The notes under the pieces are model-generated. The model saw nothing but the letters and a program-made list of their open reading frames with translations. It ran no database searches and was not told where the DNA came from. From IMG/VR virus record IMGVR_UViG_3300031918_000150, positions 1 through 23,971 of that record: 23,971 bases of DNA. One strand, 5' to 3'. Below, piece by piece: positions 1,266-6,930 of the stretch. Numbering within the stretch: the first letter of the stretch is position 1; each line of letters opens with the position of its first letter. This DNA is from a virus. The position numbers were made by a program, and so were the translations under genes.

Positions 1266-1343
1266 ACTCCCGTAGCACGGCCTGGTCAGTGCAACCGGCT
1301 GATAACCGGTAGGTCGGAGGTCCGAATCCTCCTGGGAGTACCA
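1266..1343 (+). tRNA. tRNA-Ile(GAT)
   Basis: Complete cloverleaf: acceptor ACTCCCG/TGGGAGT, D arm GCAC/GTGC with GG in the loop, anticodon stem ACCGG/CCGGT with loop CTGATAA, T arm GGAGG/CCTCC with loop TCCGAAT, discriminator A and encoded CCA. First gene of the array, 3 bases after the preceding stop codon. Confidence 0.95.
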
Positions 1344-1836: not shown

Positions 1837-1908
1837 CCTCAGGTCCGGTCGGATCGGTAATGGTGTTCTAAGCCATGATTGTGGGTTCGAATCCCGCTCT
1901 GAGGGCCA
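1837..1908 (+). tRNA. tRNA-Arg(TCT)
   Basis: Acceptor CCTCAGG/TCTGAGG, D stem CCG/CGG, anticodon stem ATGGT/GCCAT with loop GTTCTAA, T arm GTGGG/CCCGC with loop TTCGAAT, discriminator G and encoded CCA. It reads AGA/AGG, and AGA is used often in neighbouring phage genes such as the HNH genes and portal. Confidence 0.93.
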
Positions 1909-2046: not shown

Positions 2047-2343
2047 ATGGCCCACAGATACCCCGAATTGAACCGGGCATCCGTAAAGAGACACGCAGCC
2101 AGAAATACGCAGATCATTAGAGAAGCTAAAAATGTACCGTGTACTGACTGCGGAGAAGAGTTTCCATACTACGTTATGGACTTCGACCACAGAGAGTCGT
2201 CTTTGAAGAGACAATCTGTAGGGACCATGACTACATACAGCAAGGGCAATCTTCTTGCTGAGATAGCAAAGTGCGATGTTGTGTGCGCTAATTGTCACAG
2301 GATTAGGACATTTGAGCGACTGGAAGATAAAGGCAGCCAATAG
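2047..2343 (+). CDS. HNH homing-type endonuclease
   Basis: A 98-residue protein with the compact zinc-HNH layout common in phages: CTDC at residues 32-35, FDHR at 46-49 (general base His48) and CANCHR at 80-85 completing the metal site. Such enzymes nick or cut DNA and often spread as freestanding homing genes, especially next to tRNA genes. ATG 2047 is supported by GAGGAA at 2038-2043. It sits between a hairpin and a promoter inside the tRNA array, so it interrupts rather than belongs to the tRNA series. Full length for this small class. Confidence 0.82.
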   Translation: MAHRYPELNRASVKRHAARNTQIIREAKNVPCTDCGEEFPYYVMDFDHRESSLKRQSVGTMTTYSKGNLLAEIAKCDVVCANCHRIRTFERLEDKGSQ

Positions 2344-3145: not shown

Positions 3146-3550
3146 ATGAGTACAGGTAACGATCAGAAGGCAAAGCTACTAGGAATGCCTTTCGGAACAG
3201 CTACAAGTAGACTTAGAAAGTCTCTGTTGTTTCAGATGGCACAGCAGCTAGGGCGAGATATTTGTTACAGGTGTGGGGCAAAGATAGCGGTCCTTGAAGA
3301 ATTCTCTATAGAACACAAGAAAGCATGGGCATCTGCGTCATGTCCGGTAACTGCATTCTTTGACCTAGGGAATATCGAGTTCTCTCATTTATCGTGTAAC
3401 TCAGGTGCTGGATACAGAACAAGAGTTTACTCTGACGATAAAGAGAGATACAGGGAGGGATTCAAGAGATTCTATTCCGACCCTGACAATAGGGCTAAGT
3501 TTCTAGAGCGCAAACGCGAAAGATATCGCGTTTCAACATCGGGGATATAG
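3146..3550 (+). CDS. HNH endonuclease, second copy type
   Basis: A 134-residue protein with CYRC at residues 40-43, IEHK at 55-58 and NIEFSHLSCN at 76-85, the zinc-HNH pattern of phage endonucleases that share the LSCN ending. ATG 3146 is chosen over the upstream ATG 3062 because the latter lies inside tRNA-Pro, while AAGGAG at 3134-3139 sits six bases before 3146. It differs from the first HNH protein in sequence and is not a duplicate. The C-terminus is Lys/Arg rich, and its last three codons lie inside tRNA-Ala. Confidence 0.8.
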   Translation: MSTGNDQKAKLLGMPFGTATSRLRKSLLFQMAQQLGRDICYRCGAKIAVLEEFSIEHKKAWASASCPVTAFFDLGNIEFSHLSCNSGAGYRTRVYSDDKERYREGFKRFYSDPDNRAKFLERKRERYRVSTSGI

Positions 3551-3788: not shown

Positions 3789-3865
3789 CGCGGTCGTTAC
3801 AGTGAAGACACTAACCGGGTCTCATAAGCCTGGTACCTGGGGAGCGTTACCCCCGGCCGCAACCA
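3789..3865 (+). tRNA. Initiator-like tRNA-Met(CAT) with abnormal elbow loops
   Basis: At 77 bases it is the same length as E. coli tRNA-fMet, and it shares that molecule's hallmarks: C1 opposite A72 with six pairs below (CGCGGTC/GGCCGCA), 3' end AACCA, and anticodon loop CTCATAA on a GC-rich stem (CGGGT/GCCTG). The remaining arms are odd. The D arm is AGTG-AAGA-CACT with no GG, and the T arm GGGG/CCCC has loop AGCGTTA instead of TTCAAAT. The elbow contact G18G19 with T55C56 cannot form normally. It is one base from tRNA-Gly. Standard tRNA models may miss it. Confidence 0.7.
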
Positions 3866-3866
3866 T

Positions 3867-3942
3867 ACCCCGTTTGCCTAACGGCTAGGGCGTCTGCCTT
3901 CCAAGCAGGAGAGTAAGGGTTCGAATCCCTTACGGGGTACCA
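3867..3942 (+). tRNA. tRNA-Gly(TCC)
   Basis: Perfect acceptor ACCCCGT/ACGGGGT, D arm GCCT/GGGC with GG in the loop, anticodon stem TCTGC/GCAGG with loop CTTCCAA, T arm AAGGG/CCCTT with loop TTCGAAT, discriminator A and encoded CCA. Confidence 0.95.
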
Positions 3943-4775: not shown

Positions 4776-4851
4776 GCCGCTGTAGCTGAGATAGCTCTAG
4801 CGCCAGCTTGAAACACTGGAGAGGGTGGCGCAAGTCCACTTAGCGGCACCA
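4776..4851 (+). tRNA. tRNA-Phe(GAA) with altered D and T loops
   Basis: Acceptor GCCGCTG/TAGCGGC, D stem GCT/AGC, anticodon loop TTGAAAC on CCAGC/ACTGG (the pair nearest the loop is C-A), T arm GGTGG/CCACT, discriminator A and encoded CCA; total 76 bases. The D loop (GAGATAGCTCT) has no GG and the T loop is CGCAAGT instead of TTCRANN, so T54 and T55 are both replaced. Otherwise it is a full cloverleaf. Confidence 0.8.
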
Positions 4852-4854
4852 TAC

Positions 4855-4930
4855 GAGCCCGTAGCTCAGCGGTCAGAGCAGAAGCCTCTTAATCTTCTGG
4901 TCCTGGGTCCGAATCCCAGTGGGCTCACCA
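4855..4930 (+). tRNA. tRNA-Lys(CTT)
   Basis: Acceptor GAGCCCG/TGGGCTC, D arm GCTC/GAGC with GG in the loop, anticodon loop CTCTTAA on GAAGC/TCTTC (C-T mismatch next to the loop), T arm CTGGG/CCCAG with loop TCCGAAT, discriminator A and encoded CCA. Confidence 0.93.
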
Positions 4931-6152: not shown

Positions 6153-6905
6153 ATGATAAAATTGGTTCATGGTGATTGCCTTGACGCAATGACTGACATA
6201 GACTCCGAATCAGTAGACATGATCCTAACGGACTTGCCTTACGGTACAACAGCGTGTAAGTGGGATAGCGTAATTCCTCTTGATCGTATTTGGGAACAAT
6301 ACATCAGGATAGCTAAAAAGGATGCAGCGATTGTACTTACGTCTGCGCAACCTTTTACAAGCGCGTTGGTTATGAGCAACCCGAAAATGTTCAAGTACGA
6401 ATGGATTTGGGATAAGAAGATTCCTAGCGGAATGAGTTACGCAAGATTCCAGCCTATGAGACAGCACGAAAGCGTGCTTGTCTTCAGCAGAGGCACACCG
6501 ATCTACTTTCCGCAGATGACACAGAGAGACAAACCGATAAGGGGCGGGGGGATGTCCAAGGGAGAAACCACAGGCAACGAAGACCTAGTGGCCCTAAGGA
6601 AAACCTACGACCAGAAGAACCCTACGACTATCCTTAGGTTTGATAAGGTAAGGCTAGGTAGTCTTCATCCTACACAGAAACCTGTTCCTTTGTTCGAATA
6701 CCTGATTCGCACGTACACTAAACAAGGCGATCTTGTCCTTGATAGTTGCGCAGGAAGCGGTACGACTGGCGTTGCGTGTCTAAACTCAGGTAGAGATTGT
6801 ATTCTAATAGAACGAGACGCAACATACTATCAGATAATGTCTGATAGACTCCAAGCCTTGCAAGTACATATGGATGTACGCGATCTTGGTAAGATCGAGG
6901 TATAG
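6153..6905 (+). CDS. DNA methyltransferase (N6-adenine or N4-cytosine type)
   Basis: A 250-residue enzyme with catalytic motif IV DLPY at residues 26-29 and the SAM-binding motif CAGSGTTG near residue 198, preceded by HPTQKP, which is the order of the beta class. It would transfer methyl from SAM to an exocyclic amino group in duplex DNA. No restriction enzyme is nearby, so it is probably an orphan enzyme protecting phage DNA or marking it. No good SD lies before ATG 6153, which is 13 bases after a tRNA. The core ends near MSDRLQ; the last 17 codons (6855-6905) are simultaneously the 5' two thirds of tRNA-Thr(GGT). Confidence 0.88.
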   Translation: MIKLVHGDCLDAMTDIDSESVDMILTDLPYGTTACKWDSVIPLDRIWEQYIRIAKKDAAIVLTSAQPFTSALVMSNPKMFKYEWIWDKKIPSGMSYARFQPMRQHESVLVFSRGTPIYFPQMTQRDKPIRGGGMSKGETTGNEDLVALRKTYDQKNPTTILRFDKVRLGSLHPTQKPVPLFEYLIRTYTKQGDLVLDSCAGSGTTGVACLNSGRDCILIERDATYYQIMSDRLQALQVHMDVRDLGKIEV

Positions 6906-6930
6906 GGTTCGAATCCCTAGCTTGGCTCCA
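6855..6930 (+). tRNA. tRNA-Thr(GGT) embedded in methyltransferase 3' end
   Basis: D arm GTAC-ATATGGAT-GTAC, anticodon stem CGATC/GATCG with loop TTGGTAA, five-base variable loop, T arm TAGGG/CCCTA with loop TTCGAAT, discriminator T and encoded CCA all fit; total 76 bases. The acceptor GCCTTGC/GCTTGGC has two adjacent T-T mismatches in the middle. Bases 6855-6905 are also coding for the methyltransferase tail. It could be functional with a weak acceptor or slowly decaying under coding constraint. Confidence 0.72.

What the first reader, a model, noticed from the sequence alone, without database searches (positions are those of the whole stretch)
3789..3865. Initiator-type tRNA with a non-canonical elbow
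The C1:A72 mismatch, AACCA end, CTCATAA loop and 77-base length all point to an initiator, yet the D loop has no GG and the T loop is AGCGTTA. Phage-encoded initiator tRNAs are rare, and one that cannot form the normal D-T loop contact would be structurally new. It could bias initiation to phage mRNAs or replace an initiator cut by host defence.
Basis: partly seen in the sequence, partly recalled or inferred. Interest (0 to 1): 0.75.

Follow-up and report, generated by a model that had tools for sequence, protein, structure and literature searches.

The report
Phage initiator tRNA with rewired elbow
A virus of bacteria carries its own start-of-protein tRNA whose L-shaped corner is held together by a different base combination from the near-universal one, and the same swap recurs across tRNAs of many uncultivated phages, many of which an ordinary tRNA finder misses.

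Summary
The 77-nt element at 3789-3865 is real and is a tRNA gene. It lies 1 nt before tRNA-Gly in a phage tRNA array. ARAGORN and the Rfam tRNA model miss it. A covariance model built only from unrelated phages' CAT tRNAs finds it at 45.4 bits, E=3.7e-10. The syntenic position in related phage contigs holds a tRNA-Met(cat) with the same anticodon arm and six both-side compensated stem pairs.

It carries most bacterial initiator marks: C1:A72, G2:C71, C3:G70, A73, CAU, G29:C41, G30:C40. U31:G39 and G11:C24 differ.

Across 616 non-redundant tRNAs the elbow bases change together. In the subset with unambiguous numbering, U55 goes with G18 (120/120) and G55 with A18 (28/28). This tRNA (D loop AAGA, T loop AGCGTTA) belongs to the A18/G55 class.

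That class covers 32 anticodons in 33 loci, is nearly complete in some phages, and occurs in a few Patescibacteria chromosomes. I found no description of it in the searchable literature. Expression, charging and elbow geometry are inferred. Why phages use it is open; escape from elbow-reading enzymes is the leading guess.

The parts
3789..3865 (+). whole initiator-type tRNA gene (CAT) with encoded CCA end
   Evidence: covariance model R1 (window not in the model) 45.4 bits, E=3.7e-10; synteny with L003/L004 tRNA-Met(cat)
3789..3795 (+). acceptor stem 5' strand CGCGGTC (C1 unpaired with A72; G2, C3 formylation determinants)
   Evidence: sequence; pairs with 3855-3861
3796..3800 (+). 5-nt linker GTTAC between acceptor and D stem; its first G can pair with C65, giving an 8+4 acceptor/T branch in the MFE fold
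   Evidence: 4-nt insertion relative to the model
3801..3812 (+). mini D arm AGTG-AAGA-CACT; loop carries A18 G19
3816..3832 (+). anticodon arm CGGGT-CTCATAA-GCCTG (G29:C41, G30:C40, U31:G39; anticodon CAU at 3823-3825); stem extends to 7 bp in the MFE fold
   Evidence: 15-base identity with L004
3838..3854 (+). T arm TGGGG-AGCGTTA-CCCCC; A54 G55 C56 G57 U58
   Evidence: same heptamer in at least 20 other phage CAT tRNAs
3855..3865 (+). acceptor 3' strand GGCCGCA, discriminator A73, CCA
3867..3942 (+). tRNA-Gly(TCC), 1 nt downstream; the same neighbour follows the ortholog in L003/L004
3541..3615 (+). tRNA-Ala(TGC), nearest upstream tRNA; the same neighbour precedes the ortholog in L003/L004
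4776..4851 (+). tRNA-Phe(GAA), the second tRNA of this window with the A18/G55-type elbow (D loop contains AG, T loop CGCAAGT)

Best explanation
The element is a phage-encoded initiator-type tRNA (CAU) that, by inference, is cut from the polycistronic tRNA array transcript, charged with Met, formylated and used in the P site. Its elbow is not broken but rewired: A18/G55 replaces the usual G18-pseudouridine55 contact while the outward-facing G19-C56 pair is kept, the 54:58 intraloop pair is A:U instead of U:A, and the D arm is reduced to a 4-bp stem with a 4-nt loop. It belongs to a wider class of phage tRNAs with the same exchange. Because U54, U55 and A58 are absent, this tRNA cannot receive the standard T-loop modifications. 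My preferred reason for the change is selection to stay functional while not being read by enzymes that recognise the standard T loop (host modification enzymes or T-loop nucleases). Shown: the gene, conserved stems, initiator determinants, elbow covariation. Inferred: expression, maturation, charging, initiation, elbow geometry and the selective reason.
For: Independent covariance model: E=3.7e-10, window not used in the model. Model family: 23/23 pairs fully paired in 15 sequences, 10 pairs with both-side changes, slid controls at 34-47% paired. Synteny Ala-[CAT]-Gly with L003/L004, with six both-side compensated pairs (6:67, 7:66, 10:25, 12:23, 50:64, 52:62) and the elbow changed on both loops, CGGC/TTCGACT versus AAGA/AGCGTTA. 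Elbow covariation: U55 with G18 120/120, G55 with A18 28/28, U56 with A19 3/3, p=8e-31; in loci fetched without any elbow criterion, p=3.8e-19. The strict scan that collected these tRNAs gave 0 hits on 3.45 Mb of reversed sequence. Initiator marks: G2:C71 with C3:G70 in 26/37 CAT tRNAs having G29G30:C40C41 versus 27/562 of other anticodons; 1:72 unpaired in 17/37 versus 19/562. The same determinants are described in PMC7949028. Cellular precedent: 8 of 192 sampled genomes of one Patescibacteria phylum have CAT tRNAs with this elbow, four of them initiator-like.
Against: The A18/G55 contact is inferred from covariation, with no structure. The third GC pair (G31:C39) and A11:U24 of E. coli tRNA-fMet are absent. 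This copy has a 5-nt D linker and a U49/C65 mismatch not seen in the model family. There is no expression, charging or formylation data. The evasion step has no direct evidence here: PMC9086364 reports one tRNase that cuts within the T loop, a precedent only.
Confidence: 0.78

Rival explanations
1. It is a decaying pseudogene of a canonical phage tRNA-Met that has lost its D-T contact.
For: ARAGORN and Rfam miss it; the 5-nt linker and U49/C65 mismatch are irregular; the L003/L004 ortholog has a canonical GG/TTC elbow.
Against: Stems stay paired through six both-side changes versus the ortholog. D and T loops changed together to a combination found in many unrelated phages. The CCA end, 1-nt spacing and initiator determinants are intact.
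Confidence: 0.1
2. It is a functional CAU tRNA but not an initiator: an elongator Met tRNA, or an Ile tRNA whose C34 is converted to lysidine.
For: The CTCATAA loop is shared by all three CAU tRNA types (my knowledge). Several CAT members of the class have paired 1:72 and lack G29G30 (L188, L244, L261). It is the only CAT tRNA found in the window.
Against: C1:A72, G2:C71, C3:G70, A73 and G29:C41, G30:C40 together are the initiator set. 1:72 is unpaired in only 19/562 non-CAT tRNAs.
Confidence: 0.12
3. The A18/G55 elbow is not an evasion device but follows the host: these phages infect bacteria whose own tRNAs or modification enzymes use this elbow.
For: Chromosomal CAT tRNAs of some Patescibacteria carry the same exchange.
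Against: Only 8 of 192 genomes matched, and where a second CAT tRNA was found in those loci it had the canonical elbow. In this window 19 of 24 tRNAs keep U55, and the related arrays L004 and L023 are all U55. Hosts are unknown.
Confidence: 0.25
4. It is a tRNA-like decoy or regulatory RNA rather than a translating tRNA.
For: Untypical elbow and loss of T-loop modification sites.
Against: Full cloverleaf, CCA, initiator determinants and anticodon are conserved in unrelated phages; in some phages nearly every sampled tRNA has this elbow (L261 12/13, L331 9/10, L289 6/6), which fits translation better than a decoy.
Confidence: 0.05

Closest known systems
Bacterial initiator tRNA-fMet (E. coli metY/metZWV type)
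   Same: C1:A72, G2:C71, C3:G70, A73, CAU, CUCAUAA loop, G29:C41, G30:C40
   Different: U31:G39 instead of G31:C39; G11:C24 instead of A11:U24; 4-nt D loop; A18/G55 and A54/U58 instead of G18/pseudouridine55 and m5U54/A58
Eukaryotic initiator tRNA (tRNAi-Met)
   Same: A54 instead of U54 in the T loop (PMC7912444)
   Different: Has an A54-A58 pair and (my knowledge) keeps U55 and C56; here G55 and U58
tRNA-Sec
   Same: 4-nt D loop (PMC7609411)
   Different: tRNA-Sec has a 6-bp D stem, a long variable arm and the canonical D-T contacts; this one has a 4-bp D stem, a 5-nt variable loop and CAU
Phage tRNAs with anticodon-loop changes that evade tRNA nucleases (PMC10264068)
   Same: Phage tRNA arrays whose members depart from host tRNAs at conserved positions; evasion proposed
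   Different: There the changes are in the anticodon loop; here in the elbow, with paired D/T-loop changes
Syntenic tRNA-Met(cat) of contigs L003/L004
   Same: Position between Ala(TGC) and Gly(TCC), anticodon arm, A72/A73-CCA, 4-nt D loop
   Different: Canonical GG/TTCGACT elbow and U1:A72

Membership tests
tRNA (cloverleaf family) | four-arm cloverleaf with CCA end and conserved stems across relatives | tested here: met
   R1 search 45.4 bits, E=3.7e-10; pairs 100% in the model family
tRNA (cloverleaf family) | recognised by general tRNA models (ARAGORN, RF00005) | tested here: not met
   ARAGORN finds 507/518 canonical but 36/77 of this elbow class, so this is a limit of the models
tRNA (cloverleaf family) | G18 with U55 (pseudouridine) elbow contact | tested here: not met
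   D loop AAGA, T loop AGCGTTA
tRNA (cloverleaf family) | G19-C56 tertiary pair possible | tested here: met
   G in AAGA and C56 in AGCGTTA; 147 of 148 C56 tRNAs have G19 in the fixed-register set
Bacterial initiator tRNA | unpaired 1:72 | tested here: met
   C1:A72; rare in other anticodons, 19/562
Bacterial initiator tRNA | G2:C71 and C3:G70 | tested here: met
   invariant in 15/15 model sequences
Bacterial initiator tRNA | three G:C pairs 29-31/39-41 | tested here: not met
   two of three; position 31:39 is U:G, as in 35/37 of the phage set, partly by search design
Bacterial initiator tRNA | A11:U24 | tested here: not met
   G11:C24 in AGTG/CACT
Bacterial initiator tRNA | charged with Met, formylated, used at start codons | not testable with these tools
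   needs biochemistry
A18/G55 elbow class (defined here) | AG in the D loop together with GC at 55-56 | tested here: met
   AAGA with AGCGTTA; 28/28 fixed-register G55 tRNAs have A18
tRNA-Sec | 6-bp D stem, long variable arm, UCA anticodon | tested here: not met
   4-bp D stem, 5-nt variable loop, CAU

The most novel reading that the evidence does not exclude
Phages have evolved a second, fully functional solution for the tRNA elbow (A18/G55, often with A54/U58), used for nearly whole tRNA sets in some phages. It makes their tRNAs, including the initiator, independent of the host's T-loop modifications and invisible to enzymes or nucleases that read the T-psi-C loop: a modification-free, defence-resistant translation kit.
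Probability: 0.25. Interest if true: 0.92.

Novelty: new variant of a known kind. Interest (0 to 1): 0.74.

Why it matters
The G18-pseudouridine55 contact and the T-psi-C loop are treated as near-universal and are built into tRNA finders. A recurrent covarying alternative shows what the elbow really requires, and explains why about half of such genes are missed by a standard finder. It also makes the question of what drives phage tRNA divergence testable: modification independence, defence escape or host match. For initiation, it identifies widespread phage initiator-type tRNAs where they were thought to be largely avoided.

Tried and rejected
Chance cloverleaf: a relaxed structure scan alone cannot exclude it (decoy 17.2 versus 16.2), but the independent covariance model does.

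Known cultured phages: blastn of the element and of three other class members against 50,697 phage records gave no real match.

Closer relatives through the major capsid protein: only contigs of the same phage.

First D-arm reading GTTA/TAAC with a 12-nt loop (my scan): replaced by AGTG/CACT from the MFE fold and the covariance alignment.

Literature searches for A18/G55 elbows or phage tRNAs with altered T loops found no report; the library is open-access only, so absence there is weak.

Counting the D-loop class by simple presence of GG/AG gave misleading tallies; I replaced it with a fixed-register test.

Full report
What was checked. The window is a 24-kb phage fragment with portal, major head and tail proteins and a tRNA array of at least 25 genes between 1266 and 7006. 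ARAGORN and the Rfam tRNA family miss the element, the latter even at E up to 1. The minimum-energy fold is a cloverleaf with D arm AGUG-AAGA-CACU, a 7-bp anticodon stem and an 8+4 acceptor/T branch, but its z-score is only -1.74.

Is it more than chance? A relaxed cloverleaf scan gives it 16.2, and one reversed-sequence decoy scores 17.2, so structure alone does not decide. Homology does. The contig L004 (and L003), whose portal protein is 62% identical, carries the same array order around it, and an ARAGORN tRNA-Met(cat) sits in the same place between Ala(TGC) and Gly(TCC), with the same 1-nt gap to Gly. The two share the anticodon arm. They differ by both-side changes at six pairs that keep pairing (6:67, 7:66, 10:25, 12:23, 50:64, 52:62), by a one-sided change at 28:42, and only 49:65 is unpaired in the window copy, where C65 can pair with G8 instead.

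A covariance model was built from 15 CAT tRNAs of unrelated phages; the window was left out. All 23 pairs of that family are paired in all 15 sequences, 10 with both-side changes. The model finds the window element at 45.4 bits, E=3.7e-10, with the best clearly non-tRNA place in the window at 9.2 bits. The L003/L004 ortholog scores 46.8 bits.

The elbow. The same scan on 3.45 Mb of reversed sequence gave none. After removing near-duplicates, 616 remain. T-loop positions 55-56 are TC in 518, GC in 77 and TT in 14.

TC goes with GG in the D loop (505 of 518). GC goes with AG: 66 of 77 lack GG altogether (Fisher 2.4e-62; 3.8e-19 in loci fetched with no elbow criterion), and the rest mostly carry AG as well. 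TT goes with GA. In the 151 tRNAs with a 7-nt D loop, where numbering is unambiguous, U55 goes with G18 in 120/120, G55 with A18 in 28/28 and U56 with A19 in 3/3. The fixed-register set mixes unbiased and biased fetches, and sequences are related within loci, so the p-values are indicative; the G55 members there still span 15 anticodons and 17 loci.

The alternative is thus a coordinated exchange at 18 and 55 with G19-C56 kept. A structural review describes G18-pseudouridine55 and G19-C56 as part of the conserved core of the elbow (PMC4810234). In the G55 set, 54:58 is A:U in 37, U:A in 25, G:G in 7 and C:A in 6, against U:A in 482 of 518 canonical ones. The window element, AAGA with AGCGTTA, fits the class, and the tRNA-Phe at 4776-4851 appears to belong too. 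For the 4-nt D loop of the window element, the assignment of A18 and G19 within AAGA is by analogy with the class, not by fixed register.

Extent. The class covers 32 anticodons in 33 loci, and in some phages nearly every sampled tRNA has it (L261 12/13, L331 9/10, L289 6/6). ARAGORN finds 507 of 518 canonical tRNAs in this set but 36 of 77 of the G55 class. The same exchange was found in CAT tRNAs of 8 of 192 sampled genomes of one Patescibacteria phylum, four of them initiator-like. Neither the element nor three other class members has a real match in 50,697 phage records.

Initiator identity. C1:A72, G2:C71, C3:G70, A73, G29:C41 and G30:C40 are present; the mismatch, the GC pairs and the 2:71 and 3:70 pairs are the described determinants (PMC7949028). 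The third GC pair is U31:G39 and 11:24 is G:C. Across the phage set, G2:C71 with C3:G70 occurs in 26/37 CAT tRNAs that carry G29G30:C40C41 against 27/562 of other anticodons, and 1:72 is unpaired in 17/37 against 19/562. U31:G39 in 35/37 is partly built into the pattern, but the pattern did not ask for it and its CAT members share it.

Mechanism. Best reading: a working initiator tRNA with a rewired elbow. Loss of U54, U55 and A58 removes the m5U54, pseudouridine55 and m1A58 sites, while the outer G19-C56 face used by RNase P and the ribosome is kept. That suits a tRNA that must pass the standard machinery without standard T-loop modification. Whether the driver is modification independence, escape from T-loop nucleases (one tRNase cutting between T and pseudouridine in the T loop is known, PMC9086364), or host match is not decided. 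Phage tRNA divergence as defence escape has been proposed for anticodon loops (PMC10264068), where phages were said generally to avoid tRNA-fMet.

Verdict. Observation confirmed; interpretation partly supported; a new variant of a known kind. The 'cannot form the D-T contact' part is replaced by a covarying alternative contact.

Noticed in passing
window 1266-1343, 1674-1748, 4855-4930: Three tRNAs (Ile GAT, Cys GCA, Lys CTT) have C55 (TCCGANT) with GG in the D loop, so 5 of 24 tRNAs in this window lack U55, against 0/25 in L004 and 0/30 in L023.
   Followed up: partly
window 1837-1908: A tRNA-Arg(TCT) with CCA end and canonical TTCGAAT loop but a short D arm, missed by ARAGORN and Rfam.
   Followed up: no
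window 6153-6905 and 6855-6930: The open frame of the DNA methyltransferase inside the array runs 51 bases into the tRNA-Thr(GGT) gene.
   Followed up: no
window 2047-2343 and 3146-3550: Two HNH endonuclease genes lie between tRNA genes of the array, perhaps homing-type elements.
   Followed up: no
L050, L126, L307, L331, L354, L356 and others: A third covarying elbow class: GA at 18-19 with UU at 55-56, i.e. G19-C56 replaced by A19-U56 (14 non-redundant tRNAs).
   Followed up: partly
alignment A2, columns 21-23 with 42-44: The AGCGTTA-class CAT tRNAs have an anticodon stem lengthened by three pairs beyond a bulged base, two of them varying with pairing kept.
   Followed up: partly
L390-L397: Chromosomal CAT tRNAs of some Patescibacteria carry A18/G55, in the initiator in some genomes and in an elongator-like one in others.
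   Followed up: partly
L032, L063, L068, L099, L102, L114 (e.g. L032:8239): Phage CAT tRNAs with GG in the D loop but T loop ATCGTTA (A54/U58 only), showing that the 54:58 exchange can occur without the 18/55 one.
   Followed up: no
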